Shown: piece by piece, positions 15,003 to 32,069 of the stretch
Numbering within the stretch: position 1 is the first letter of the stretch
How the letters are laid out: the number at the start of each line of letters is the position of its first letter
NCBI RefSeq assembly: GCF_016907055.1
Contig: NZ_JAFBBG010000013.1
Span: 1-44,318, forward strand
Direction: 5' to 3'
From: Paracholeplasma morum
GTDB lineage: Bacteria > Bacillota_I > Bacilli_A > Acholeplasmatales > UBA5453
DNA: 44,318 nucleotides
Made by a program: the position numbers and the translations under genes
Notes under the pieces: model-generated
Seen by the model: only the letters and a program-made list of their open reading frames with translations
What the model was told of the DNA's origin: nothing
The model's database searches: none

Positions 15003-15029
15003 ATAAATGAGATTAACGAGGTGGAACAT

Positions 15030-16058
15030 ATGGCGTTTAATATTAATAATAGGAGATACACTGGAAGTAAGAGTAAACTATCTGAATGGATTAGGAACAT
15101 AATAATCGAAGAATGTAAAGACTCTGAATCTTTTTGTGATATATTTGCTGGAACTGGTGTAGTAACATATACCATGTTTGATGATTATAAAGAGTTTATT
15201 ATAAATGATTTTCTATATTCTAATGAAGTAATTTATAATGGTTTTTTTGGCAATAAAAGTTATGATTATGAGAAGTTAATCAAAATAGCAAAAAAATATA
15301 GAACTTTGAATGTGGATGAACTAAAACCAGATTTTGTGACAAACAACTACGGAAACAAGTACTTTTCTATGGAAGATGCTTTGAAGATTGATTACATTCG
15401 AAATGATATTGAGAACAGACATAAAAATCTAACAAAAATGGAGTATTATATTCTTTTAACATCACTAATATATTCTTTTGATAGATCAGCAAACACGGTA
15501 GGACACTATGATGCCTTTATAAAAGCTAAGAACTTGAAAGCATCTTTTAAATTTGAGTTGATCTCACCAGTTATTAAAGATGAAGATAATCGTACTGTAA
15601 AAATATACAGAGAAGATGCAAATAAACTAGCTCGGAGAATTTCTGCAGACATTGTTTATATTGATCCACCGTATTCTTCCAGACAGTATAGTAGATTTTA
15701 TCATGTTATTGAGACTATTACAAAGTGGGATAAACCGGAGTTGTTTGGTGAAGCATTGAAACCAGAACCAGAAAACGTTAGTGAATATTGCAAAACCAAA
15801 GCGATAGATTTTTTTAATGAACTGATAGTTGATTTAAGAGCTAAATATATCGTGGTATCGTATAATAATACATATACATCAAAAAGTAAGTCATCAAAGA
15901 ATAAAATGACTCTAGAAGAAATTACTGAAGTTCTAAATAGAAAAGGTCCTACAAAGATTTTTTCAATGAATCATAGAGCTTTTAATGCAGGTAAGACAGA
16001 ATTGGATAATCATCAAGAGATGCTATTTGTTACGAAAGTGAGGAACCAAAATGATTAG
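15030..16058 (+). CDS. Type II N6-adenine DNA methyltransferase 1 (D12 class)
   Basis: A 342-aa DNA methyltransferase. RRYTGSKSKLSEWI (motif X-like), FCDIFAGTGVVTYTM (motif I, SAM binding) and DIVYIDPPYSSRQYS (motif IV, catalytic DPPY) come in that order, as in the D12/alpha group. The ATG at 15030 is chosen because GAGGTGG (15018-15024) precedes it; a GTG at 15021 is inside that site. It overlaps the second methyltransferase by 8 bases. Asymmetric type IIS sites need one adenine methylase per strand, which explains the pair. The recognition sequence cannot be read from the sequence. Confidence 0.85.
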   Translation: MAFNINNRRYTGSKSKLSEWIRNIIIEECKDSESFCDIFAGTGVVTYTMFDDYKEFIINDFLYSNEVIYNGFFGNKSYDYEKLIKIAKKYRTLNVDELKPDFVTNNYGNKYFSMEDALKIDYIRNDIENRHKNLTKMEYYILLTSLIYSFDRSANTVGHYDAFIKAKNLKASFKFELISPVIKDEDNRTVKIYREDANKLARRISADIVYIDPPYSSRQYSRFYHVIETITKWDKPELFGEALKPEPENVSEYCKTKAIDFFNELIVDLRAKYIVVSYNNTYTSKSKSSKNKMTLEEITEVLNRKGPTKIFSMNHRAFNAGKTELDNHQEMLFVTKVRNQND

Positions 16059-16941
16059 ATCACCATTTTTTTATGTTGGAGATAAATATAAATTAATGCC
16101 GCAACTAAGAAAGCATTTTCCTAAAAAGTATAAGACGCTTATTGAACCTTTCGTTGGTGGAGGGAGTGTATTTTTAAACACTAAAGCTGATCATTATGTG
16201 GGTAATGACAAGAATACACATATGATTAAACTTCATAACTTCTTGTATTCATATAAAAACAATAGAGTCAAGTTTTTCCAGGAATTTGAAAAAATTATAA
16301 TCGAATATGGATTTTCTGCTTCTTATCTTGGTAATACAGTATCGGACGAGTTGAAGCAAAAACATAAAAAAACATACTATGCAGTATTTAATAAGAAGCC
16401 TTATATGAAATTAAGAAGTGATTTCAATAAGGATAAAGAAAACTATATGTTTCTGTATTTACTGTTAATTTATGGTTTTAATCATATGTTAAGATTTAAT
16501 CGAAGTGGAGATTTCAACTTGCCTGTTGGAAATGTAGATTATAATAAGAACGTTTTCAAAGCTTTAAATGTCTATTTTGATTTTATTGATAAACATGAGG
16601 TTAAATTCTTTAATTTAGATTTTAAAGATTTCTTATTAAATAGAGAATATCAGTCAGATGATTTTGTATATTTAGATCCTCCATATCTGATTAGCGCATG
16701 TGAGTACAATAAAGGTTGGACTGAAGATAGTGAAATCGAACTTTTAAATGTAATTGATAAACTTAATGATATGGGTGTCAAATTTGCACTTTCAAATGTC
16801 TTTATTCATAAAGGACAAGAAAATCGATTATTGATAGACTGGGCAAAAAAATATAAAGTAGAACAGGTCAAAAGTAACTACATTAGTTACCACGATAACA
16901 CAATCAAGGAAACCGTAGAAGTTTTAATTATGAATTATTGA
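16051..16941 (+). CDS. Type II N6-adenine DNA methyltransferase 2 (D12 class, Dam/DpnM-like)
   Basis: A 296-aa methyltransferase with PFFYVGDKYKLMPQL (motif X), LIEPFVGGGSVFLNT (motif I) and DDFVYLDPPYLIS (motif IV DPPY), the layout of the Dam/DpnM group. It starts within the end of the first methyltransferase gene, with a GTGAGG ribosome binding site. It probably methylates the other strand of the same asymmetric target. Both enzymes need S-adenosylmethionine, which a MetK encoded further along the prophage could supply. Confidence 0.85.
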   Translation: MIRSPFFYVGDKYKLMPQLRKHFPKKYKTLIEPFVGGGSVFLNTKADHYVGNDKNTHMIKLHNFLYSYKNNRVKFFQEFEKIIIEYGFSASYLGNTVSDELKQKHKKTYYAVFNKKPYMKLRSDFNKDKENYMFLYLLLIYGFNHMLRFNRSGDFNLPVGNVDYNKNVFKALNVYFDFIDKHEVKFFNLDFKDFLLNREYQSDDFVYLDPPYLISACEYNKGWTEDSEIELLNVIDKLNDMGVKFALSNVFIHKGQENRLLIDWAKKYKVEQVKSNYISYHDNTIKETVEVLIMNY

Positions 16942-16953
16942 GTGGGGGATTTT

Positions 16954-18492
16954 ATGTCGAGAAAAATAGTAAAACAAAAGCCTAGATATAAACAAATGTC
17001 ATTGGAGACAGCTGTTAGAAACCCTGAAAGATATAAAGAAATACTGAGCATTCTTATTGAATATGAGAATGCTGTTTTAAATGATGACAATCTACTAGAA
17101 ATAGTCACTCATTTATATAGAGAAGGTATTGTATCAGCATTAAGACAAGATTTCAATCAAATGACTATTGCACAGCAAAAGAAGACTGTTAAGAAAGTAA
17201 ACTTAACACGAAAAGCAGATGGTGGCTTTCCTATGGGTTATGCATCTAGATTTTGGACATATGTGAGAACTTTATCTGAGTTTGGTTTTCTTTATGCAAC
17301 TTATAATGATAAACTTATTATTTCTGATATTGCAAAACTATTAGTCAAAGAAGAAATTGATGATCAAATCGCATTTGCTACACAAGCAGCAATCTATAAT
17401 AGAAAGTCTCCTTTTAGAAACGTATCAAATGATTATAATTATTTCAAATTTATCACAAATGTACTCATCAGACTGAACGAAAGCAATAAAACTTTATCAT
17501 ATGAACAGTTTGTCGTATCTTTATTTAATAAAGAAGGAAATGTGGATGATTTTATTAATGAAATCAATTCAAACTCATTTAGCAATGATGATTCTGTTTA
17601 TGATTATCTTGTGGAAAAGTACCAGGTTAATAACAAAATAGGTACAGTTACCAAAGACTATCCTGATGCTGTGCTAAGATTACTCAAAATTACTGGTTTT
17701 ATTTCTATAAAATATGCTGGTAAAATAAGAATAATGATTAACCACGATAAGTTGCAGTTTATTGAACAAATTTTTTCAAATGATTATGTTTTTTCAGAGG
17801 AGCAAAAGTCAGATCGCAAATTATTCTTTAATCAGTTTATCCTTTACTCAAAACAGTTAATAAAGACAACAGCAAGTTGGACTGTAGAAAGCCAAGAAGA
17901 CGTTCATATCAAACTTAAGAAGGTTGTGGATGAATACAAGATAGATATTGAAAAAATTGGTCAATTACTAGCAAATTTTGTAGCAAATAAAGATCGTGAG
18001 TTTAAATATGTTCCTGATCCATTGAAATTGGAGTTTTATTTATCTCTTTTGCTGTATTTAGTATACGGAAAAGACCATATTATTGCGCCAAATTATAAAG
18101 TGGATTCGTTGGGAATGCCTATCTCTCATGCACCGGGTAATCACGGAGATATTTATGTTTATTCAGATGTTATCAATTGGCTAATTGAAGTTACCATGAT
18201 TAGGAATAAACAACAACAACTCAATAATGAAACAACTAGTGTAATTAGACATTTGGAAGAAGATACTAGAGATAGTTATTTATCATTTGTAGCCCCTTTT
18301 GTACATCCAGATACTCAAGCATTCTATGATAATGAAATAATTAGGATGTTATTAACCGACAAACTTGTTTATCTTGAAACTTATAGCATAAGTGATTTTG
18401 TAGACAAGGTAATGATGAATCAAGTACATGATTCAATGAAGAACTATACAAATAATATCTTTACTAATGTCAGAAAAAAATTGAACATTTGA
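16954..18492 (+). CDS. Type IIS restriction endonuclease, AlwI family
   Basis: A 512-aa protein. Early residues SLETAVRNPERYKEILSIL and the C-terminal block PLKLEFYLSLLLYLVYGKDH, followed by APNYKVDSLGMPISHAPGNH, are typical of the AlwI/PleI/MlyI group. The nuclease core is GDIYVYSDVINWLIEVTMIR, where Asp of GD and Glu of EVT are spaced 13 residues apart, as in related enzymes. These cut a few bases outside an asymmetric 5-bp site; some relatives are nicking enzymes. The ATG at 16954 is preferred, since GTGGGGGA just upstream is the ribosome binding site. Its neighbours are the two matching methylases. Confidence 0.8.
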   Translation: MSRKIVKQKPRYKQMSLETAVRNPERYKEILSILIEYENAVLNDDNLLEIVTHLYREGIVSALRQDFNQMTIAQQKKTVKKVNLTRKADGGFPMGYASRFWTYVRTLSEFGFLYATYNDKLIISDIAKLLVKEEIDDQIAFATQAAIYNRKSPFRNVSNDYNYFKFITNVLIRLNESNKTLSYEQFVVSLFNKEGNVDDFINEINSNSFSNDDSVYDYLVEKYQVNNKIGTVTKDYPDAVLRLLKITGFISIKYAGKIRIMINHDKLQFIEQIFSNDYVFSEEQKSDRKLFFNQFILYSKQLIKTTASWTVESQEDVHIKLKKVVDEYKIDIEKIGQLLANFVANKDREFKYVPDPLKLEFYLSLLLYLVYGKDHIIAPNYKVDSLGMPISHAPGNHGDIYVYSDVINWLIEVTMIRNKQQQLNNETTSVIRHLEEDTRDSYLSFVAPFVHPDTQAFYDNEIIRMLLTDKLVYLETYSISDFVDKVMMNQVHDSMKNYTNNIFTNVRKKLNI

Positions 18493-18518
18493 TGTATTAA
18501 TTATATAAAGAGGTCGAT

Positions 18519-21500
18519 ATGTCTATTATAAGCAGAATTCAGAGTTCCATAAAACAACTTAATGGTGGAGAGTTTCAAAGGTTTGCTGATGCATATGTGG
18601 CAAGAAGATTAGTGTTTAAAAGTATGCATAGTTTGGGAATGCAGGCTGGAACCGAAAAAACTACAAAAGGAGTACCGGACACATATTTTATTGATAATTC
18701 TGACAAATACATTTTTTTGATGTCAACAACTGATAGTAATGTGTTTAGTAAACTGAAAAAGGATTTGAATGATGCGTTAGACATAGGTAAGACAAAAATA
18801 GATAACTTATTAATCAAAGAAGTTATATTGGCACACACATCATCAAATTTGACAGTAGAACAAACGAATGAGCTAATGAATATAGCTCGTGAGAAGAAAA
18901 TAGATTTAAATATATATGGGATCGATCAAATTTCACAGGATTTGTATTATAGATATAAAGACTTAGCAAGAGATTTCTTAGGTATAAAACTTGACACAAA
19001 TCAAGTGTTTCAAGTTCAAGATTTTATTAAGTATAACGACTCAAACTCTATTGCTGCACCACTTGATACTAAGTTTTTGAAACGAGATAATATTTTTAAT
19101 GAATTATATAATAAAGTGAATCGAAGTAATTATGTTATTGTATATGGTAAAGCAGGATCGGGAAAAACTAGGATATCCTTAGAGTTCTGTAGAATATTCA
19201 GTAAAGAAAATAATTATAAATTGATATGCATTAAGAGTAACGATTTAGATATCTATGAAGACATCATTACTAACTTACAAGAGCCTGGTGCTTATTTGAT
19301 TTTTATAGATGATATAAATATGTTAACGAAAGTAGGTTTTGTTTTAGATTATTTATATAAAAATGATACTGGATATAATGTAAAGATTATAGGGACTGTT
19401 CGAGAATACTCTTTAACACAATTAATCAATAGGACAGCATCAATTGCCACGCCTGAAACACTTAAAGTCGACTTAATGAGTGATGATGAAATTGGCCTAC
19501 TAATTAAAGAAAATTTTGATATTCACAATTTGGTATATATTAAGCAAATTCAGCGCATTTCAAATGGCAATCCTCGATTAGCTATGTTAACAGCAAAACT
19601 TGCAGTGGATAGTCAAGATTTATCAAAATTACACAGTGTTTCAAATTTATATGACGCATATTACGGAAAATACATAGATAATTGCAATTCTTTGACCAAG
19701 GAAGATCTTTTAGTTGCTAGTTTAATATCTATTATAGGTAATTTTGATTTAAATTACTATGAAGTATTTGAGAGCTTATTGGAATCAATGAAGATAGATG
19801 AAACACAGTTTTATTTGAGTGTGAAAAACCTTGAAGCAAATGAAATGGTTGATATATACGAAGATCAAATTGTCAAAATTGCTGATCAAAACATGGGTAA
19901 TTACTTAATCAAGTATTCTCTAGTTGATAAAAAATTAATTGAATATAGTGACTTGATCGTTTTAACTTATCGTAAGTTCAACCGACAGTTAGTTGAAAGT
20001 ATGAACGTTTTAAGTAATATATTTTACTCTGATGAGATATTTGAGTTTGTTAAATCGTCAACTGTAAAAGCTTATAAGTTAAATGTTTCTAGAGAATCAA
20101 GTGAATTAAAATGGTCATTCTTAACATCATTTTATGTGTTCTTTCCGGATGAAATCATATCATTAATACATGATGCAATTGAAAAGGTCAAAGATGACGG
20201 ATGTGAGTTCTCACTTAATAATGTTTCGATAAATCAGTATTATGAGATCCTATTTGGACTATATAGTTCAAACAATGATTTAACTCCTTTAGAATTAGCT
20301 ATAAATTTACTTGAAATTTATCCTGAAACACACGAGTCATTTTATAATGAACTAGTAAATAGATGTGGTGTGAATTCTGATAGTGACTATTACGGAAATC
20401 TCTCTTTAGTTAAGCTAACAGAACATCTCATTTCACATTCAGATAATTATCAGATTAAACCATTGCGTCATATTTTTTGTAAATTAGCTCAATACCTATT
20501 GAAATTCGAATTTAATCCCACAGAACATGAGAGATCAAAAATAATCTACTATACAATTTTCGCAAAAGATAGAGATGATTTTATTCAATTAAGGAAGCTT
20601 GGATGGAAATTGATTGTTTCTTTAGTTAGTGATAATGAGTTTAGGATGGATGCTCGGAAAATTTTATACAAATATCATATTAATCAGGAGTATGCAAAAT
20701 CTAACCTGGGTAAAATTGATTTAGAGAACATATGTCTTGTCATTAAGTTATTAAGTTATGAAGATATAAATGATTGCATTATAGCTGTTGGGTTAGGTGA
20801 ATTTTTTAAAGATCATGTTCAGATCAAATCTAGTTTAGCTCCATTTTTTAATAATAGAGAATATATTGTTTTTCATACTGTGGTTGGATATAAATACTCA
20901 CGAACATATGATTATGTAGACATTAATGAGAAAATTGATTCAGATATTAAAATAATGTTGCAAAATGAGGATATCAAATTCATATTAAATTTTATTGAAA
21001 ATGCCAGTGAAATCTTTAATGACTCACAACATATTCAATCATTAATTTCGGGGCTTAATAAGATGATTGAGATTTGCTATCAAGATGAGGTTACATTAAA
21101 AATCATTTTAGACTATATTTTTAGAAGTAACCAATTGATTGACAAAGTGAATCCATATATCGTTTTGAAAGGTTTATATACACTTTATAATAATAAGACA
21201 AAAGCAAAAAACGAAATTGAAAGAATTACAAATACCTCATCGCATAAATATTTGTTTGCATATTTCGAAATGCTCAGTAGTGATGAATTTGACAAGGAAG
21301 ACTTAGAAAGTCTTATAACGTTGATGAATGAAAGATATTGGTATGATTCTGAATTTAATTTCCATATAGATTTTAGGTTTTTACTTAAACACCATGATAA
21401 TTTTCCAAGTATTGTAGATGACATATTCAAGGTAATTCTCAATAAAAGTCTGGAGTTTAATGTGAATAATATATTAGTTAGAAGTGTTTTTAATGAATAT

Positions 21501-22229
21501 TTGATGCCAAGAGAAGTTATCAATTTAGTTACTGGTGATACACTTACCTTATTGTTTGATACATATTGCTATAAGGTAAAGTCAGACCCAAACACTGATT
21601 CAAATGGAAAACTGCTAATGTACTTTTATAATATTGACTCCAAATATTTATATAGATATATTGATTTATATGCTTCATTAGATAAACATACATTCTACAG
21701 TAGAATTTACTTTATTTGGTCTACTCCCGAATATTCTAAACTTGTTTCCAAGATATTTGACATAGTGATTTCGTCAAGAAGTGTTCATGATATGACCGGT
21801 TACTATCTTAGTGATTTCTTTGTAAAACAATCTAGAGTTAATACAGTTAATGATATGCAAAGAAAAAAAATAGAGTTGATAGAAAACTATTTAAAGGACA
21901 ATGTTAATGTTTTAGAAAAGCTTGAACTAATTTTTAGTATTGTTTCGTATTATCCAACTGATGTAAAACTAAAGTTTTTCACTATTCTAGCAGAAAATAA
22001 TATTGAATTTTCTATTTTTGACAGACTGGATTTAGAAAAAAGATTGTCTTCCTGGACCGGCAGTGCAATCCCCTATCTGGAGGATAAAATTAAATTCATA
22101 AAAGGATTACAAGATGTTTTTAGAGGATTGAAGTTCATAAAGCATAGAGAGAAACTTAATCGATTTTTGGTATCATATGAAAATGACATCAAAAAAACAA
22201 GAATTGAGGAACTTACAAGAAGTTTTTAA
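18519..22229 (+). CDS. Large STAND-type NTPase with N-terminal nuclease-like domain (candidate anti-phage sensor)
   Basis: A 1236-aa protein, 26 bases after the restriction enzyme gene with an AGAGG site. Residues 1-150 start with QLNGGEFQRFADAYV, then GTEKTTKGVPDTYF and YIFLMSTTDS, the pattern of a restriction-endonuclease-like (Mrr/PD-D/ExK) fold. In this family pattern an acidic residue is expected before TT, but here it is Met-Ser, so activity is uncertain. Residues about 180-370 form an NTPase: Walker A YGKAGSGKT (209-217), Walker B LIFIDDI (260-266), GTVREY (292-297) and SNGNPRLAML, as in nSTAND3-type domains. The remaining 850 residues look like helical sensor repeats. By analogy with Avs proteins it may sense a phage protein; this is inference. 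Confidence 0.65.
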   Translation: MSIISRIQSSIKQLNGGEFQRFADAYVARRLVFKSMHSLGMQAGTEKTTKGVPDTYFIDNSDKYIFLMSTTDSNVFSKLKKDLNDALDIGKTKIDNLLIKEVILAHTSSNLTVEQTNELMNIAREKKIDLNIYGIDQISQDLYYRYKDLARDFLGIKLDTNQVFQVQDFIKYNDSNSIAAPLDTKFLKRDNIFNELYNKVNRSNYVIVYGKAGSGKTRISLEFCRIFSKENNYKLICIKSNDLDIYEDIITNLQEPGAYLIFIDDINMLTKVGFVLDYLYKNDTGYNVKIIGTVREYSLTQLINRTASIATPETLKVDLMSDDEIGLLIKENFDIHNLVYIKQIQRISNGNPRLAMLTAKLAVDSQDLSKLHSVSNLYDAYYGKYIDNCNSLTKEDLLVASLISIIGNFDLNYYEVFESLLESMKIDETQFYLSVKNLEANEMVDIYEDQIVKIADQNMGNYLIKYSLVDKKLIEYSDLIVLTYRKFNRQLVESMNVLSNIFYSDEIFEFVKSSTVKAYKLNVSRESSELKWSFLTSFYVFFPDEIISLIHDAIEKVKDDGCEFSLNNVSINQYYEILFGLYSSNNDLTPLELAINLLEIYPETHESFYNELVNRCGVNSDSDYYGNLSLVKLTEHLISHSDNYQIKPLRHIFCKLAQYLLKFEFNPTEHERSKIIYYTIFAKDRDDFIQLRKLGWKLIVSLVSDNEFRMDARKILYKYHINQEYAKSNLGKIDLENICLVIKLLSYEDINDCIIAVGLGEFFKDHVQIKSSLAPFFNNREYIVFHTVVGYKYSRTYDYVDINEKIDSDIKIMLQNEDIKFILNFIENASEIFNDSQHIQSLISGLNKMIEICYQDEVTLKIILDYIFRSNQLIDKVNPYIVLKGLYTLYNNKTKAKNEIERITNTSSHKYLFAYFEMLSSDEFDKEDLESLITLMNERYWYDSEFNFHIDFRFLLKHHDNFPSIVDDIFKVILNKSLEFNVNNILVRSVFNEYLMPREVINLVTGDTLTLLFDTYCYKVKSDPNTDSNGKLLMYFYNIDSKYLYRYIDLYASLDKHTFYSRIYFIWSTPEYSKLVSKIFDIVISSRSVHDMTGYYLSDFFVKQSRVNTVNDMQRKKIELIENYLKDNVNVLEKLELIFSIVSYYPTDVKLKFFTILAENNIEFSIFDRLDLEKRLSSWTGSAIPYLEDKIKFIKGLQDVFRGLKFIKHREKLNRFLVSYENDIKKTRIEELTRSF

Positions 22230-22649: not shown

Positions 22650-23174
22650 ATGAAAGGGAAAATGCTAGATCTGTATGAGCGTTGGGAAGAATCTGGGCAC
22701 CTAAACAGTAGATTAAAAGCCATATCTGAAATGATATCTAAAAGAGCAACACAAAGACAGGTTGCAGAATACTTAGGTATCACAGAAAAGACACTCATTA
22801 AGTTAAGAAAAGCTCATCCCAAGTTGAACAAAGCATTTCAATATGGGGATGAGGAACTAAAAGAAAAGTTAGTTGATGCTATGTATCAACGAGCAATCGG
22901 ATTTGAATATGAAGAAACACAAACTGTGATAGAAGAGACTAAATCAGGGACAAAGAAACGAATCACAAAATACAAGAAGCAGTCACTTCCTGAAATCACA
23001 GCTATTAAATACTTACTCATTACAAAGTTCGGTATTGAGTATAACGAGAAAAAAGCAGAAATAGAACTGATGACCAAACGTTTAGAAAAAGGTGAAGAGG
23101 TATGGATAAATGAATATAGTGATGAAGAAAGTATCAGCACTCCAAGAGTACGAAAACAATCCAAGAAACAATGA
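22650..23174 (+). CDS. Phage HTH protein (small-terminase-like or regulator)
   Basis: A 174-aa protein with a helix-turn-helix near residues 32-60 (SKRATQRQVAEYLGITEKTL, then IKLRKAHPKLNKAF). After that come YQRAIGFEYEETQTVIEETK, ITKYKKQSLPEITAIKYLL and a charged end. Proteins with an HTH followed by such a YEE.Q...E tail resemble some phage small terminase or terminase-like DNA-binding proteins. A separate P27-type TerS exists at 28633, so its job is not clear. It starts after GGAGTG and overlaps the ParB-N/methylase gene by 65 bases. Confidence 0.5.
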   Translation: MKGKMLDLYERWEESGHLNSRLKAISEMISKRATQRQVAEYLGITEKTLIKLRKAHPKLNKAFQYGDEELKEKLVDAMYQRAIGFEYEETQTVIEETKSGTKKRITKYKKQSLPEITAIKYLLITKFGIEYNEKKAEIELMTKRLEKGEEVWINEYSDEESISTPRVRKQSKKQ

Positions 23175-24321
23175 TGCTGCAATCGATGCGGTTGCAAAGA
23201 GTATAGAAGAGTTTGGATTTAAAGTTCCGATTGTGATCACTAAAGATCATGTCATTATTGCAGGACACACAAGACTTAAAGCGAGCCTTAAACTTGGACT
23301 TGATGAAGTACCTTGTATTATTGCTGATGATTTAACAGAAGAACAAATCAAAGCATTCAGACTTGCAGATAACAAAACTGCAGAGCTTGCGACCTGGGAC
23401 TTTGCCAAACTTGAAGAAGAGCTTGCAAACATTGAAATGGATATGTCTCTCTTTGGGTTTGAAGAACTTGTAGCTGATGTACCAGACAATGCGACCGATG
23501 ATGACTTTGATCCAACAGATGATCTATCAGATGCACCATATACACAAAAGGGCGATATCTATATCTTAGGTAATCACCGAGTGATGTGTGGTGATTCAAC
23601 TTTAAAAGCGGATGTTAAGAAACTAATACAAGACGACCTTGTTGATCTGGTTTTTACTGATCCACCATACAACGTCGATTATGAAGGTACAGCTGGAAAA
23701 ATTATGAACGATAAGATGGAAGATAATACATTCTATCTTTTTCTTTTTAAAGCCTTTGAGAATATGTTTGAACATACAAAACCAGGTGGCGCTATATATG
23801 TGTGTCACGCTGATACGGAAGGACTCAATTTTAGAAACGCATTCAAAAATGCTGGTTATAAACTTGCAGAGTGTCTTATATGGGTTAAAAACGCACTAGT
23901 TTTAGGTAGACAAGATTATCACTGGCGACATGAACCAATTCTTTATGGTTGGAGAGAAGGTGCCGCTCATTACTTTGTGGATGACCGTACTCAAGATACG
24001 ATATGGGAATATAACAAACCAAAACGAAATGAAGAACATCCTACGATGAAACCATTAGAACTCGTCGGTAAAGCTATCGCTAATTCATCCAGAGTGAATG
24101 AGATAGTCCTAGATTTATTTGGTGGTTCTGGATCAACCATGATCGCATCTGATCAACTTCAAAGAAGAGCAAGAATCATGGAACTGGATGAACGATTTGT
24201 GGATGTGATTGTAAAACGCTATATAAAGTACAAAGTTTCGCTTGATGATTGCCATCTCATTCGTAATGGAAAAGAGATACCACTTAATCAAATCAACGAC
24301 TTTCAGATATTGTCACTATAG
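23110..24321 (+). CDS. ParB-N/DNA adenine or cytosine-N4 methyltransferase fusion
   Basis: A 403-aa phage DNA modification methylase. Residues 1-110 are a ParB/sulfiredoxin-like domain (ENNPRNNDAAIDAVAKSIEE, then VIIAGHTRLKASLKLGL). The catalytic part has VDLVFTDPPYNVDYEG (motif IV) and, near the end, EIVLDLFGGSGSTMIA (motif I), so the order is that of the beta group. This fusion is common in Firmicute prophages, where it modifies phage DNA, perhaps against host restriction. The start at 23110 has GAAGAGG upstream; an in-frame ATG at 23122 is an alternative. Confidence 0.85.
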   Translation: MNIVMKKVSALQEYENNPRNNDAAIDAVAKSIEEFGFKVPIVITKDHVIIAGHTRLKASLKLGLDEVPCIIADDLTEEQIKAFRLADNKTAELATWDFAKLEEELANIEMDMSLFGFEELVADVPDNATDDDFDPTDDLSDAPYTQKGDIYILGNHRVMCGDSTLKADVKKLIQDDLVDLVFTDPPYNVDYEGTAGKIMNDKMEDNTFYLFLFKAFENMFEHTKPGGAIYVCHADTEGLNFRNAFKNAGYKLAECLIWVKNALVLGRQDYHWRHEPILYGWREGAAHYFVDDRTQDTIWEYNKPKRNEEHPTMKPLELVGKAIANSSRVNEIVLDLFGGSGSTMIASDQLQRRARIMELDERFVDVIVKRYIKYKVSLDDCHLIRNGKEIPLNQINDFQILSL

Positions 24322-25879: not shown

Positions 25880-27028
25880 ATGAAGATTATAACAAGTGAA
25901 TCTGTCTTTAAAGGACACCCAGATAAAATATGTGACCAAATTAGTGATGCAATTTTAGATGCACATTTGGAACAAGACAGAAATGCAAGAGTAGCAGTAG
26001 AAACAGCTATCAAGGATGATGTTGTTTTTATTTTTGGTGAGGTAACTTCTAAAGCTTCAGTGAATTATAAAGAAGTGGCCCTAAGCACATTAAAAGAAAT
26101 CGGATATGATGATCCATTCGATGTGATTGAAAAGATATCCAAACAGTCCGATGATATTGCACTTGGTGTGAATCATACGAATGATCATGAACAAGGTGCA
26201 GGTGATCAGGGCTTAATGTTTGGTTACGCTTGCAAAGAAACGCCCGAATTAATGCCTTTACCAATCGTAGTGGCACATGACATCGCAAGAAACATTGATG
26301 AGCTTAGAAAGGCAAAATATGGCCACGTGTTTGGTCCAGATGGTAAGTGCCAAGTATCTGTAGTATATGAGAATGATGAACCGATTGCATATGAAACAAT
26401 TGTAGTGTCTGCTCAAACAAAACATGGTATTCAACTAGACTATGCAAAAGAGATTATTCTAAATGAAGTGTTAAAGCCTCTGATTGGTGAAGACCTTTCA
26501 CACATTCAAGTCTTAATCAATCCAACAGGTGCTTTTGTCGTAGGTGGTCCTTATGGAGACTCTGGATTAACTGGTAGAAAGATTATAGTTGATACCTATG
26601 GTGGTTATGCAAAACATGGCGGTGGCGCATTCTCTGGCAAAGATGTGAGCAAGGTAGACCGCAGTGCGGCTTACTATGCCAGATTTGTAGCAAAAGCCCT
26701 TGTAGCGGCAAATTTAGCCGACAGGTGCGAAGTTAGCGTGTCCTATTCCATCGGTGTAGCAAACCCTGTAAGTGTATCCGTTGATACCTTTGGAACAGGG
26801 GTTACCTCTGATGACATTCTATTGAAGTTAATTAAAGAGAACTTCAACTTTACACCTTCAAGTATTATCAAAGAACTAAACCTGGACAAAGTGAAGTTTA
26901 AAACTTTAGCATCCTATGGACATATTGGTCGTGTAGATCTTGATGTAGCATGGGAACAAATAGATGCTAAAGCAAAACAACTAAGTGAATCTTATGAGCA
27001 AACCAAAAGAGCTGCACAGGTTTTATAA
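25880..27028 (+). CDS. metK: S-adenosylmethionine synthetase (methionine adenosyltransferase), phage-encoded
   Basis: A 382-aa enzyme that makes S-adenosylmethionine from methionine and ATP. The signatures HPDK (13-16), GAGDQGLMFGYA (from 106), PTGAFVVGGPYGDSGLTGRK and GGGAFSGKD (from 247) are all present, so it should be active. Length is close to the usual 380-400 aa. It lies inside the prophage between small accessory genes and the HNH/packaging genes. SAM feeds the three DNA methyltransferases of this prophage, which is a likely reason for carrying it; this role is inferred. GAGG precedes the start. Confidence 0.9.
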   Translation: MKIITSESVFKGHPDKICDQISDAILDAHLEQDRNARVAVETAIKDDVVFIFGEVTSKASVNYKEVALSTLKEIGYDDPFDVIEKISKQSDDIALGVNHTNDHEQGAGDQGLMFGYACKETPELMPLPIVVAHDIARNIDELRKAKYGHVFGPDGKCQVSVVYENDEPIAYETIVVSAQTKHGIQLDYAKEIILNEVLKPLIGEDLSHIQVLINPTGAFVVGGPYGDSGLTGRKIIVDTYGGYAKHGGGAFSGKDVSKVDRSAAYYARFVAKALVAANLADRCEVSVSYSIGVANPVSVSVDTFGTGVTSDDILLKLIKENFNFTPSSIIKELNLDKVKFKTLASYGHIGRVDLDVAWEQIDAKAKQLSESYEQTKRAAQVL

Positions 27029-27278
27029 GTCGAAGGCTTGGTTCATTGCTCGCAATATAAAAACAAACGCCACACAGGGCAAGTGTGAGCGGTGTGGCGC
27101 GATTGGTGAAGAGGTTCACCATAAAATTAGATTAACTGTAGATAATGTTAATGATAGTAATATTAGTTTGAATCAAGATAACTTGGAGTTGTTATGTAGG
27201 GACTGTCACAATAAAGAGCATGGACGATTCAAAAAGAAAGATGTTTTGTTCGATGACGATGGCAATTTCATTGGCTAA
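26994..27278 (+). CDS. HNH endonuclease (packaging-associated)
   Basis: A 94-aa HNH protein: FYKSKAWFIARNIKTNA, CERCGAIGEEVHHKIRLT with the first CxxC and the HH pair, and NLELLCRDCHNKEHGR with the second CxxC and the N and H of the motif. HNH proteins next to terminase genes work with terminase at the cos cut in HK97-like phages. It starts within the end of metK; the ATG at 26994 is preferred over a GTG at 26985, although no strong ribosome binding site is seen, which suggests coupling. Confidence 0.82.
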   Translation: MSKPKELHRFYKSKAWFIARNIKTNATQGKCERCGAIGEEVHHKIRLTVDNVNDSNISLNQDNLELLCRDCHNKEHGRFKKKDVLFDDDGNFIG

Positions 27279-27315
27279 CTGATATAATTTAAGAAAAGAT
27301 AAAGGAGTTGCTCTC

Positions 27316-27621
27316 ATGCCACTATATTTAGAAATTATATTTACTATTATTGGATTTGTAATATCAATATTAGGATTGGTTTTTGGTTCAAAAGCTCTTT
27401 TTAGTATTAAAAAAATTAACAAACAAAGAAATGAACATGGCGATAATTATCAAAACAGCACAATTAATCATGGTTTAAATGCAGATGACATAATTAAGAT
27501 CATCAACAATCTTCCAAAATCTGAAATTGAGAAAGTAAGAGAAGGTATAATAACTACTTTTGGTAAAGAGCAGCCTAAGAATCCAAAAGAAGGAGATATT
27601 TGGATTAAACCAATTGATTGA
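27316..27621 (+). CDS. Small membrane protein of unknown function, next to the cos-like region
   Basis: A 101-aa protein with one N-terminal membrane segment (about residues 3-29, LEIIFTIIGFVISILGLVFG) followed by a cytoplasmic-looking helical part (ADDIIKIINNLPKSEIEKVR) and a C-terminal KEGDIWIKPID. An AAAGGAG site precedes the ATG. It lies between the HNH gene and the cos-like region, a place where phages often keep extra genes. It may be a superinfection-exclusion or immunity protein, or a partner of the HEPN protein across cos; these are guesses. Confidence 0.6.
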   Translation: MPLYLEIIFTIIGFVISILGLVFGSKALFSIKKINKQRNEHGDNYQNSTINHGLNADDIIKIINNLPKSEIEKVREGIITTFGKEQPKNPKEGDIWIKPID

Positions 27622-27727
27622 TGTACCCCCCATCCCAATACTGATGTTATTCCTTAAGGTACCGCATGGGTGGGCCTTTAAAAAATGAAAGCCCAAATTT
27701 TTGAAAATCCTGTTTTTGGAGGGGAAG
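27622..27727 (+). other. Candidate cos/packaging region
   Basis: A GC-rich island in AT-rich DNA between the HNH gene and terS. CCCCCCATCCC (about 27626-27636) faces TGGGTGGGCC (about 27667-27676), and GGGCCTTT/AAAGCCC forms a hairpin (27672-27694), with GGTACC in between. GC-rich inverted segments between an HNH gene and terminase genes are typical of cos sites in HK97-like phages. The exact cut cannot be placed by eye. Confidence 0.5.
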
Positions 27728-28165
27728 ATGATTATGCAAGACCTAGAATTAAGTTTCTTAAATGTCTTTTTACTAACTCATGGGATCACTGAAAAGATAG
27801 AAAAGAAGTTTAATGAGTCAAAATTGAGTAAAATTGAGTTCATTAAAGAATATCCTTCATATGCAGATTTGAATCAGCTGATGTATCAATCAGCACTTCT
27901 TCAAGCACGCAAACTTTGGGAAGCTAAACTATACTATAATTTGACAGAAGACGAGTGGTTCAAAATTAGAGATTGGAGACATGAGATTGCTCACTCAGAT
28001 AAAAAGGATAAGCAGACCCTCAAAGCAATAGGTGATTTAAACTTAGAATTGATTCCTATTTTAAACAAGTTAAACGAAGCGATTTATAAGAAATACAATC
28101 TTGACGGCAATTTAAAATATGAGGAATACGTTAATAAATATCTAAAGGATATAGCGAATCTCTAA
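27728..28165 (+). CDS. HEPN-motif protein (putative RNase toxin or defence protein)
   Basis: A 145-aa helical protein. RDWRHEIAHSDKKD contains Arg84-x4-His89, the RX4-6H signature of HEPN ribonucleases, in the usual place at the end of a long helix. The frame is open upstream to a TTG at 27701, but GGAGGGG (27718-27724) serves the ATG at 27728. It sits between the cos-like region and terS, where a packaging gene would be expected, and is closed by its own terminator, so it looks like an inserted accessory gene. Many abortive-infection and toxin proteins use HEPN domains; activity here is inferred. Confidence 0.6.
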   Translation: MIMQDLELSFLNVFLLTHGITEKIEKKFNESKLSKIEFIKEYPSYADLNQLMYQSALLQARKLWEAKLYYNLTEDEWFKIRDWRHEIAHSDKKDKQTLKAIGDLNLELIPILNKLNEAIYKKYNLDGNLKYEEYVNKYLKDIANL

Positions 28166-28173
28166 AACTATCA

Positions 28174-28194
28174 AGTCACTATAGTGGCTTTTTT
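28174..28194 (+). terminator. Terminator after the HEPN gene
   Basis: AGTCAC (28174-28179) and GTGGCT (28184-28189) around a TATA loop, followed by TTTTTT. Confidence 0.75.
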
Positions 28195-28203
28195 CAATAA
28201 AAA

Positions 28204-28246
28204 AACAATGTTTGAATTGAATTATTCATTTCAACTAAACATTGTT
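28204..28246 (-). terminator. Terminator of the minus-strand cassette
   Basis: Perfect 10-bp arms AACAATGTTT (28204-28213) and AAACATTGTT (28237-28246), with a further TTGAA/TTCAA pairing inside. On the minus strand the stem is followed by seven T's. It lies 9 bases after the stop of the small hydrophobic peptide gene. Confidence 0.85.
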
Positions 28247-28255
28247 AATTTACAG

Positions 28256-28348
28256 TTATTTTTTCTTCTTGCAATTAAGTAATAAATTGAGAATTGAGAT
28301 CAATAAACTTATTAAAGAAATCACTACTCTTAGAGAATCTAGACTCAC
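28256..28348 (-). CDS. 30-aa hydrophobic peptide, type I toxin/holin-like (hidden small ORF)
   Basis: On the minus strand a GTG start (28348-28346) has AAAGGTGA six bases upstream. The product starts MSLDSLRVVISLISLL, continues ISILNLLLNC and ends in four lysines, then TAA. A short polar start, one membrane helix and a lysine tail are the features of Gram-positive type I toxins (TxpA/Fst/putative holin-like toxin group). It is followed at once by a strong terminator and preceded by a promoter-driven RNA with its own terminator. No antisense antitoxin was identified. Small size makes the call uncertain, but signals and protein pattern agree. Confidence 0.6.
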   Translation of the reverse strand: MSLDSLRVVISLISLLISILNLLLNCKKKK

Positions 28349-28384
28349 AGCATTTCACCTTTTTCTAGAGGTTATGCATTGATA

Positions 28385-28419
28385 AAATAAAAAGCAATGC
28401 AAAAATTTAACTTTGCATT
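28385..28419 (-). terminator. Terminator or attenuator between the minus-strand RNA and the peptide gene
   Basis: AATGCAAA (28396-28403) and TTTGCATT (28412-28419) form the stem; on the minus strand it is followed by GCTTTTTATTTT. It separates the structured RNA from the peptide gene, so the peptide would be made only by readthrough or from an unseen promoter. Confidence 0.75.
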
Positions 28420-28582
28420 ACCCGACATACCCTTTTTTTACCTAGTCAGTTTCTAGTTCTATGTCCGACGTTTTTACCTCTGTCGATGAGTAGTGATTTC
28501 TTTCGAGTTTGACCTGTTCTCTCAGTTTAAAAGCCTTTTACCTGTATGGTCAGTTTCTTGGTAATATTTAGAGTTATCCTCT
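28386..28582 (-). ncRNA. Candidate structured RNA of about 195 nt, antisense to the phage late operon
   Basis: It starts after a consensus promoter and ends at an intrinsic terminator. Predicted by eye: hairpin TAGAG-GATAA-CTCTA at the start; TGACC/GGTCA; CGAC/GTCG; CTAG/CTAG; GACATA/TATGTC. It contains two AGAAACTGAC copies (plus-strand 28549-28558 and 28445-28454) and three GGTAAAA copies (plus-strand TTTTACC at about 28436, 28472 and 28537). No frame of useful length was found. I do not recognise the RNA family. Confidence 0.55.
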
Positions 28583-28588
28583 ACTGAT

Positions 28589-28617
28589 ATTATACTAAAA
28601 ATACTACGTAAAATCAA
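28589..28617 (-). promoter_or_regulatory. Promoter of the minus-strand RNA/peptide cassette
   Basis: On the minus strand TTGATT (complement of 28612-28617) and TATAAT (complement of 28589-28594) are separated by exactly 17 bases. It points away from terS, against the late operon. Confidence 0.75.
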
Positions 28618-28632
28618 ATATCACTATACTGA

Positions 28633-28977
28633 ATGAGCGAGGTAATGAGCTATATGAATAAAGTGAAAGTTGAATATGAGCGACTTCGGTCGCTTTTTTC
28701 GTCGGTTGATGAAACAAAAACAAAACTGGTTGACAATCTTATTGAACAAGCAGCGTTTATGAAGATTGAACTTGGAATCCTTCAGGACCAAATAAGAAAA
28801 CATGGAGCTATTCAGATATCAAATAAAGGTGCTCAAAGACAAACTGAAGCAGCGAAGTATTATACAAAACTAGTGAATTCATATGGAACAGTCATCAAAA
28901 CACTTAATTCAATTATGGGTAAAAACATTATTGATGAAGATGATGAGTTTGACAAGTTCATAGGTAGAATGTCATAA
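28633..28977 (+). CDS. terS: Terminase small subunit, P27 family
   Basis: A 114-aa DNA-recognition subunit of the packaging motor. VDNLIEQAAFMKIELGILQD, then HGAIQISNKGAQRQTEAAKY and YTKLVNSYGTVIKTLNSIM, is the P27/TerS pattern seen directly before TerL in HK97-like phages. The first ATG (28633) has no clear site; ATGs at 28645 and 28654 lie after GAGGT (28640-28643 region) and may be the real start. A strong hairpin with a T-run lies within its first 25 codons (28679-28698), which is unusual. It overlaps terL by one base. Confidence 0.8.
   Translation: MSEVMSYMNKVKVEYERLRSLFSSVDETKTKLVDNLIEQAAFMKIELGILQDQIRKHGAIQISNKGAQRQTEAAKYYTKLVNSYGTVIKTLNSIMGKNIIDEDDEFDKFIGRMS
28679..28698 (+). terminator. 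Terminator-like hairpin inside the start of terS
   Basis: AGCGAC (28679-28684), loop TTCG (28685-28688), GTCGCT (28689-28694), then T's to 28698. A C(UUCG)G tetraloop is exceptionally stable, and the stem plus T-run is a textbook intrinsic terminator, here within codons encoding RLRSLF. It could act as an attenuator of packaging and structural genes when translation or antitermination is absent. Confidence 0.6.
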
Positions 28978-30641: not shown

Positions 30642-32069
30642 ATGAAAATTAAAGATCTTGATGACATTATAAGGAAAGTCCCCTTATCAAAAAGACTAAA
30701 GGCATGTCAAATCGAATCTTATGATAGAATAGGTGCTAATTCACCAATTATCCTTAGTAATGAGAGTCATTCCAATAGACCATCAAATTATGAATTAGAA
30801 TTGATCGCTTTTAGATCAATCATTAATTCCCCTTGTGAAAACTATAGAGAAAGAAAGAGTAATTGGTTATTTGAAGCAACTAAGTTATTAAGAAATAACG
30901 ATTTTTTTAATGCTGAAAATATATCAACTGACGAGATATTTTCGCGAATATTGTTCTTACAAATGGAGCCACAAATTAACTACAATATTTTATATTATAG
31001 ATACAATTATTTTTTCAACTTCGAATCAGAACAACTTGATATGAAAGAAGAGTTTTTTAATAAATTTGGTGTAAACTATAAAAGTTTCGTTAATCTCTCT
31101 TTTTTTACACTGGCTTTTGCACAATCATTAAAAGATGATAGCTTTAATTATGCATTAGAATTAATTCTTGATGATGAAGACAAGATAGCACTTAAATGCA
31201 TAACAAGCACACCTGATAAACTACTAGAAAAGCACGAGGAACTAGTATCACGACTAAGTGAATCACGAAATGAGTTTTTTGATCTAAATTTATTATCACA
31301 ATTTCCTATTGTTGATTATATGAATCAACGATTTATTCCTTATATTCCATATATCCCATATGCTTGTACTCGGAGCTTAATGTTTAGATTAACTGAGAAT
31401 AATGATGCTCTAAGACAAAAAATAGGAAAGTCTGTTTTAGAAAACTATCTAGAATATTTAGTAATGAAATCAGAAGTTACGAACAAATTTCGACATATAA
31501 AAGAATTCAAGTATTCAAAAAATAACAAAGATAGTTCAGACTTAATGATTCATTCAGATGATGAACTTATTTTTATTGAGGCTAAATTATTTAATCAAAG
31601 TCTTAAACTCAGATCACTTGAAGTTGAAGAAATTACTAAGTCTCATGAGAGAGTATCGGATGCTATTGTTCAGATACTAAGAAATATTGTTGACATGAAA
31701 AATGGAGAAATGAATGAATATTTAAGTGTTTTTGAATTAAATAAAACATATGGTATTGTCGTATTATATGATGAGTTCTATTTTAACAATAACGAAACTT
31801 ATCAGTTAGCGTACAGAAAAAGCAAGGAAAAAGGATATGATTTCACGAAAAAGCAAATCGAGGACATGATAAAAATTTATTCACTAACAATGCTCGAGAA
31901 TAACTTGAATATATATGGAGGTCATATTTTTCAGTTATTGAAGGGGTTGGAAATGAAATCACCTGTCAGCAGATTATTAAATTTTGAAGCAGTATGCAAA
32001 TCACTCATTAGTCATGATGAAGAAGAAATTAAGAAGAGGGTCACAAAGAATAAGGTGATGATCAAATGA
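30642..32069 (+). CDS. Accessory protein with PD-(D/E)XK nuclease-like core, inserted between terL and portal
   Basis: A 475-aa protein with no phage structural features. SSDLMIHSDDELIFIEAKLF contains Asp300...Glu313-x-Lys315 on neighbouring strands, the PD-(D/E)XK core. The upstream part is helical and rich in Asn and Glu; RFIPYIPYIPYACTR (about residues 228-242) has three IPY repeats. The part after the core is a long helical region. It has its own AGAGGAG site and overlaps the portal start by 4 bases. TerL and portal are usually adjacent, so this gene looks like a moron. An anti-phage or competitor-exclusion role is inferred from position and the nuclease motif. Confidence 0.6.
   Translation: MKIKDLDDIIRKVPLSKRLKACQIESYDRIGANSPIILSNESHSNRPSNYELELIAFRSIINSPCENYRERKSNWLFEATKLLRNNDFFNAENISTDEIFSRILFLQMEPQINYNILYYRYNYFFNFESEQLDMKEEFFNKFGVNYKSFVNLSFFTLAFAQSLKDDSFNYALELILDDEDKIALKCITSTPDKLLEKHEELVSRLSESRNEFFDLNLLSQFPIVDYMNQRFIPYIPYIPYACTRSLMFRLTENNDALRQKIGKSVLENYLEYLVMKSEVTNKFRHIKEFKYSKNNKDSSDLMIHSDDELIFIEAKLFNQSLKLRSLEVEEITKSHERVSDAIVQILRNIVDMKNGEMNEYLSVFELNKTYGIVVLYDEFYFNNNETYQLAYRKSKEKGYDFTKKQIEDMIKIYSLTMLENNLNIYGGHIFQLLKGLEMKSPVSRLLNFEAVCKSLISHDEEEIKKRVTKNKVMIK

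What the first reader, a model, noticed from the sequence alone, without database searches (positions are those of the whole stretch)
28204..28617. Hidden antisense cassette: promoter, structured RNA with internal repeats, attenuator, toxin-like peptide, terminator
On the minus strand, inside the rightward late region, all parts of a separate unit occur in 410 bases: a TTGATT-17-TATAAT promoter, an RNA of about 195 nt with two AGAAACTGAC and three GGTAAAA copies, an intrinsic terminator, a GTG-started 30-aa peptide with a membrane helix and lysine tail, and a second strong terminator. The peptide looks like type I toxins, but the layout (repeat RNA, terminator, then toxin) recalls type III toxin-antitoxin operons, whose toxins are large RNases. 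This mix is not one I know. It may be a phage addiction or superinfection element, or leader-controlled holin-like killing.
Basis: partly seen in the sequence, partly recalled or inferred. Interest (0 to 1): 0.75.

Follow-up and report, generated by a model that had tools for sequence, protein, structure and literature searches.

The report
Prophage peptide gene with same-strand antisense RNA
A small gene cassette in a prophage of an Acholeplasma-like bacterium encodes a toxin-like membrane peptide and, just upstream on the same strand, a perfectly conserved RNA complementary to the start of that peptide's own message, which looks like an RNA-silenced toxin in a layout for which I found no precedent in the papers I searched.

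Summary
The upstream RNA ("RNA-A", about 28582-28388, minus strand) contains a 16-nt perfect complement (21 nt at 90%) of codons 7-12 of the 30-aa ORF, with weaker pairing beyond. None of 1500 shuffled pairs reached 16 nt; the pairing gain is -26.8 kcal/mol (z -5.4), and a read-through transcript folds with z -5.9.

Between the window and four other alleles, RNA-A has 0 substitutions in 194 nt, while the flanking phage genes vary at 13-17% of sites and the ORF at 9%. The promoter hexamers and 16-nt arms are invariant. The cassette stays beside terS while the cargo gene upstream changes, and two relatives lack it.

Best reading: a type I-like toxin-antitoxin element whose antitoxin RNA lies in tandem on the toxin's own strand, i.e. 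type III geometry with type I pairing. Type III membership fails (repeats near chance, toxin not an RNase). Transcripts, toxicity and cleavage are untested; coding of the ORF is only weakly supported; no separate toxin promoter was found; the cassette occurs only in close phage relatives.

The parts
28589..28617 (-). Promoter TTGATT-17-TATAAT for RNA-A; start predicted at A28582
   Evidence: 10 of 12 consensus. In the alleles both hexamers are invariant while the spacer (28609, 28608) and the -10/+1 gap (28586-28584) vary. Spacing fits mapped A. laidlawii promoters (PMC5138195).
28388..28582 (-). RNA-A, the predicted antisense (antitoxin) RNA, about 195 nt
   Evidence: 0 variable sites in 194 among 5 alleles, against 43/328 in terS and 280/1638 in terL; one 1-nt indel at 28432.
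28483..28503 (-). Antisense arm in RNA-A (16 nt perfect at 28488-28503)
   Evidence: Inverted repeat; mean unpaired probability 0.73 in RNA-A; invariant.
28385..28423 (-). Terminator 1: 13-bp stem and T tract, ends RNA-A
   Evidence: stem invariant in the alleles.
28357..28362 (-). Shine-Dalgarno-like AAGGTG region before the GTG start
   Evidence: Sequence.
28256..28348 (-). GTG-started 30-aa ORF MSLDSLRVVISLISLLISILNLLLNCKKKK: hydrophobic helix and lysine tail, toxin candidate
   Evidence: Open in all alleles with 3 conservative amino-acid changes; coding not proven by substitutions.
28314..28334 (-). Target arm in the ORF, codons 5-12 (16-nt core 28314-28329 = codons 7-12)
   Evidence: Inverted repeat; 0/1500 shuffles reach 16 nt; core invariant.
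28198..28252 (-). Terminator 2: hairpin followed by seven T
   Evidence: Inverted repeat I2; sequence; one substitution (28249) in the alleles.

Best explanation
A type I-like toxin-antitoxin cassette carried as prophage cargo, with the antitoxin RNA encoded upstream, in tandem, on the toxin's own strand. (1) A conserved sigma-70-type promoter makes RNA-A, most of which stops at terminator 1 (inferred from sequence). (2) Some polymerases read through, or an undetected weak promoter starts downstream, giving an mRNA for a 30-aa membrane peptide (inferred). (3) RNA-A pairs through an exposed 16-nt arm, and then further along the ORF, with that mRNA (complementarity shown; pairing in the cell inferred). 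[quoted passage not shown] RNase III is present in the genome). In an uncut read-through RNA the same arms pair in cis, so that transcript is born silenced; a processed or separately started mRNA needs RNA-A in trans. (5) If the prophage is lost or RNA-A synthesis stops, the peptide is made and damages the membrane: prophage addiction or exclusion (inferred by analogy with prophage type I systems).
For: Inverted repeat linking RNA-A and ORF. 16-nt perfect complement, 0/1500 shuffles; pairing gain -26.8 kcal/mol against -9.8 +/- 3.2 (z -5.4). Read-through transcript folds at z -5.9 with this pairing. Gain kept in other alleles, -22.1 to -27.7. RNA-A invariant while flanks and ORF diverge. Among 720 SD-preceded small hydrophobic ORFs in 2.1 Mb of fetched sequence no other has such an upstream same-strand complement beyond single 12-nt matches. 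The cassette sits next to terS with two different cargo genes upstream and is absent in L046 and L057. RNase III in the genome. Precedent for RNase III silencing of prophage peptide toxins: PMC3531473.
Against: No transcript or toxicity data. No toxin promoter of 9/12 or better between terminator 1 and the ORF, so it is unclear how free toxin mRNA would arise. The pairing begins about 20 nt after the start codon and does not hide SD or start in the model. RNA-A is conserved over its whole length, more than pairing alone needs. Substitutions do not prove the ORF is translated. Alleles are few and closely related.
Confidence: 0.6

Rival explanations
1. One attenuated transcription unit: RNA-A is only a cis leader. 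Terminator 1 limits transcription, and in the read-through RNA the leader arm folds onto the ORF, so a peptide (toxic or not) is made only when an unknown signal opens the hairpin. RNA-A has no role in trans.
For: Only one promoter found; the read-through RNA folds at z -5.9; RNA-A is conserved over its whole length, as a sensor leader would be.
Against: No leader or riboswitch family match. The pairing arms enclose the terminator rather than compete with it, so it is not a classical terminator/antiterminator switch. RNA-A alone folds no better than shuffles.
Confidence: 0.2
2. RNA-A is a phage regulatory RNA with other targets or a protein partner, and the 30-aa ORF is incidental or merely its decoy target.
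For: RNA-A is invariant over 194 nt, far beyond the pairing arm; coding evidence for the ORF is weak.
Against: The 16-nt complement to the start of an SD-preceded hydrophobic ORF is far from chance; the ORF stays open with conservative changes only; the cassette ends with its own terminator just past the ORF.
Confidence: 0.12
3. A type III toxin-antitoxin relative: repeat RNA, terminator, then toxin, with RNA neutralising a protein.
For: Same order of parts.
Against: Repeats near chance; ORF is a 30-aa hydrophobic peptide with no family match; the adjacent HEPN gene is on the other strand and is replaced by another gene in alleles with identical RNA-A.
Confidence: 0.03

Closest known systems
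Non-overlapping type I toxin-antitoxins (tisB/istR-1, shoB/ohsC, zor/orz, dinQ/agrB)
   Same: Small hydrophobic peptide and a neighbouring RNA with a short complement to the toxin mRNA.
   Different: Those RNAs are transcribed divergently and pair with the long 5' UTR (PMC4147584). Here the RNA is upstream on the same strand, separated by a terminator, and pairs inside the ORF.
Prophage type I systems of Bacillus subtilis (txpA/RatA, yonT/SR6, bsrG/SR4)
   Same: Prophage-borne small membrane-peptide genes silenced by RNA pairing, with RNase III destroying the duplex in txpA/RatA (PMC3531473).
   Different: There the antitoxin overlaps the toxin's 3' end on the opposite strand; no sequence relation was found here.
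ralR/ralA
   Same: Complementarity lies within the toxin coding region (PMC4147584).
   Different: RalR is a DNase, regulation needs Hfq, and the arrangement differs.
Type III toxin-antitoxins (ToxIN, CptIN, TenpIN)
   Same: RNA, terminator and toxin gene in that order on one strand.
   Different: Type III RNAs are tandem repeats that bind an RNase toxin protein (PMC4147584); here repeats are near chance, the ORF is a membrane peptide, and the RNA is antisense to the mRNA.

Membership tests
Type I toxin-antitoxin | RNA antitoxin complementary to the toxin mRNA | tested here: met
   16 nt perfect, 21 nt at 90%; pairing gain z -5.4; 0/1500 shuffles.
Type I toxin-antitoxin | Small (<60 aa) hydrophobic toxin peptide | tested here: met
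   30 aa, hydrophobic core and KKKK tail; toxicity itself not tested.
Type I toxin-antitoxin | Antitoxin encoded on the strand opposite the toxin (overlapping or nearby) | tested here: not met
   RNA-A and ORF lie on the same strand; criterion from PMC12390103. So it is not filed as a standard member.
Type I toxin-antitoxin | Antitoxin and toxin RNAs transcribed from separate promoters | tested here: inconclusive
   Good promoter for RNA-A; none of 9/12 or better for the ORF, but consensus scans miss weak or regulated promoters.
Type I toxin-antitoxin | Peptide toxic, toxicity relieved by the RNA | not testable with these tools
   Needs expression experiments.
Known type I toxin families in Pfam, NCBIfam, PHROGs | Sequence match to a family model | tested here: not met
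   No match at E up to 10.
Type III toxin-antitoxin | Tandem-repeat antitoxin RNA followed by a terminator | tested here: not met
   Terminator present, but repeats near chance, P 0.05 and 0.09.
Type III toxin-antitoxin | Endoribonuclease toxin downstream | tested here: not met
   Downstream ORF is a 30-aa hydrophobic peptide with no family match.
Rfam RNA families | Covariance model match of RNA-A | tested here: not met
   No hit near any gathering score in 27600-28700.

The most novel reading that the evidence does not exclude
A toxin-antitoxin layout not yet described: an antisense antitoxin RNA and its toxin in tandem on one strand, split by a terminator, so that every read-through mRNA carries its own antidote in cis while the terminated RNA acts in trans. 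The full-length invariance of RNA-A would further mean that it has a second role, such as binding a protein.
Probability: 0.4. Interest if true: 0.68.

Novelty: new variant of a known kind. Interest (0 to 1): 0.55.

Why it matters
De novo searches for type I systems look on the strand opposite the toxin (PMC12390103), so a same-strand layout would be missed. If confirmed, it adds a geometry between type I and type III, gives a simple test of how a terminator sets the toxin/antitoxin ratio, and adds a candidate maintenance element in phages of Acholeplasma-like bacteria, where my literature search found no described type I system.

Tried and rejected
Rfam on the region: nothing. DNA search in phage records and protein search of the peptide in phage and plasmid records: no match. 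DNA search in 13 family genomes: only the own copy. A repeat-motif pattern in viral contigs gave the known alleles plus chance matches inside coding regions; the 16-nt core alone occurs in many unrelated contigs by chance, and only the known alleles have it twice. Peptide profile over 160 order genomes: one true match (G040) and weak unrelated hits. RNA model over the same genomes: the same true match and a chance hit in G049. De novo screen for other tandem cassettes in 2.1 Mb: none. RNA duplex prediction without intramolecular folding was uninformative, since unrelated segments scored as well; dimer folding and longest-complement tests replaced it. The idea that RNA-A serves the adjacent HEPN gene was rejected, since an identical RNA-A sits beside another gene. 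The substitution test for coding was inconclusive.

Full report
What is there. The window is one contig of a 1.56 Mb genome and holds a prophage with a serine recombinase and a repressor-like gene on the minus strand and late genes on the plus strand (names by reading the sequences). Named relatives of its terS gene come from Acholeplasmataceae, Tenericutes and Izemoplasmatales bins, and from Acholeplasma laidlawii. Between a plus-strand HEPN gene (27737-28165, PF18737, E 6e-6), which has its own terminator at 28173-28190, and plus-strand terS (28633) lies the minus-strand cassette. The promoter is good, and its distance to A28582 matches mapped A. laidlawii promoters, which have a TTGACA box and usually 6 nt between the -10 box and the start (PMC5138195).

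A repeat search finds a 21-nt inverted repeat (90%) between 28314-28334, inside the 30-aa ORF, and 28483-28503, inside the upstream RNA. Because both lie on the same transcribed strand, the upstream RNA is antisense to the ORF's mRNA. The core is 16 nt of perfect Watson-Crick complement covering codons 7-12. None of 1500 dinucleotide shuffles reached 16 nt, and no control segment of the window exceeded 13. The gain from dimer folding is -26.8 kcal/mol against -9.8 +/- 3.2 for 200 shuffles of the mRNA (z -5.4), with 54 intermolecular pairs, mostly reaching on towards the ORF's end. A read-through transcript folds at z -5.9, whereas RNA-A alone is unremarkable (z -1.1). The antisense arm lies in an open part of RNA-A (mean unpaired probability 0.73 against 0.52 overall).

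Conservation. The cassette is found in viral contigs L021, L022, L023 and L025, in part in L024 (the contig ends inside it), and in MAG contigs L082 and L083. It is also in one genome of another family of the same order, G040. Comparing the window with L021, L022, L025 and L083, RNA-A has 0 variable sites in 194, the ORF 8 in 90, the promoter stretch 5 in 35 (all outside the hexamers), terS 43 in 328 and terL 280 in 1638 (terL without L083). Fisher p for RNA-A is 8e-5 against the ORF and 1e-9 against terS. The 16-nt core is invariant on both sides. Of the changes further along the predicted duplex, A28309G and A28300G keep their pairs as G-U, while U28285C breaks one; the pairing gain stays between -22.1 and -27.7. 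The ORF stays open in all alleles with three conservative amino-acid changes, but the counts do not prove coding (P 0.08, or 0.41 if only transitions are considered). The alleles are related by descent, so these tests treat sites, not independent events.

Context. The stretch between the HNH gene and terS is a variable cargo site: relatives carry different genes there. The cassette stays on the terS side, with HEPN upstream in the window and a 394-aa gene upstream in L021, L022, L025 and L083. In L046 a HEPN gene and its terminator lead straight to terS, and L057 likewise has no cassette. So the cassette is a separable module and RNA-A is not tied to one neighbour.

Specificity. In 2.1 Mb of fetched sequence with 720 SD-preceded small hydrophobic ORFs, only this cassette has an upstream same-strand complement longer than a single 12-nt match.

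Mechanism. Most likely RNA-A is the antitoxin of a type I-like pair. Shown here: complementarity, conservation, genetic layout, and a ribonuclease III gene in the genome. Inferred: transcription, termination, pairing in the cell, cleavage, toxicity and addiction. The pairing starts about 20 nt after the start codon and leaves SD and start as open as before in the model, so mRNA destruction by RNase III, as shown for txpA/RatA (PMC3531473), is more likely than a pure block of ribosome binding. A gap in the model is the source of free toxin mRNA, since no second promoter was found. Read-through followed by processing between the arms, or a weak or regulated promoter, would fill it.

Comparison. 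Type I antitoxins are described as encoded on the opposite strand, overlapping or nearby (PMC12390103), with divergent genes in the non-overlapping cases (PMC4147584). Type III loci have the same order as here but repeat RNAs and RNase toxins (PMC4147584). The repeats here are near chance, so type III membership is rejected. For type I, one stated feature (strand) fails while pairing and peptide features are met, so I file it as a new variant that works like type I. My literature searches covered only openly licensed papers and found no same-strand example and no Acholeplasma type I paper.

Noticed in passing
window 26985-28633 and loci L021-L100 upstream of terS: Variable cargo site between the HNH gene and terS in this phage group: HEPN, a TIR/SEFIR-like ORF (L067), a 394-aa gene without family match, and other unrelated genes; likely an accessory or defence hotspot.
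   Followed up: partly
window 28353-28345 (-): A two-codon ORF ATG-CTG-TGA overlaps the GTG start of the peptide; the only variant there (L021, C28350T) is synonymous. Possibly a start-stop leader for coupled translation.
   Followed up: partly
window 25880-27028: The phage carries a full-length S-adenosylmethionine synthetase-like gene downstream of a ParB-like/DNA methyltransferase gene (23110-24321).
   Followed up: no
window 15021-22229: Two DNA methyltransferase-like genes, an AlwI-type restriction enzyme (PF09491, E 4e-60) and a 1236-aa protein with weak nSTAND NTPase matches in a row: a probable defence island inside the prophage.
   Followed up: partly
window 30642-32069: A 475-aa ORF without Pfam or PADLOC match between terL and the portal-like gene, perhaps further cargo.
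   Followed up: no
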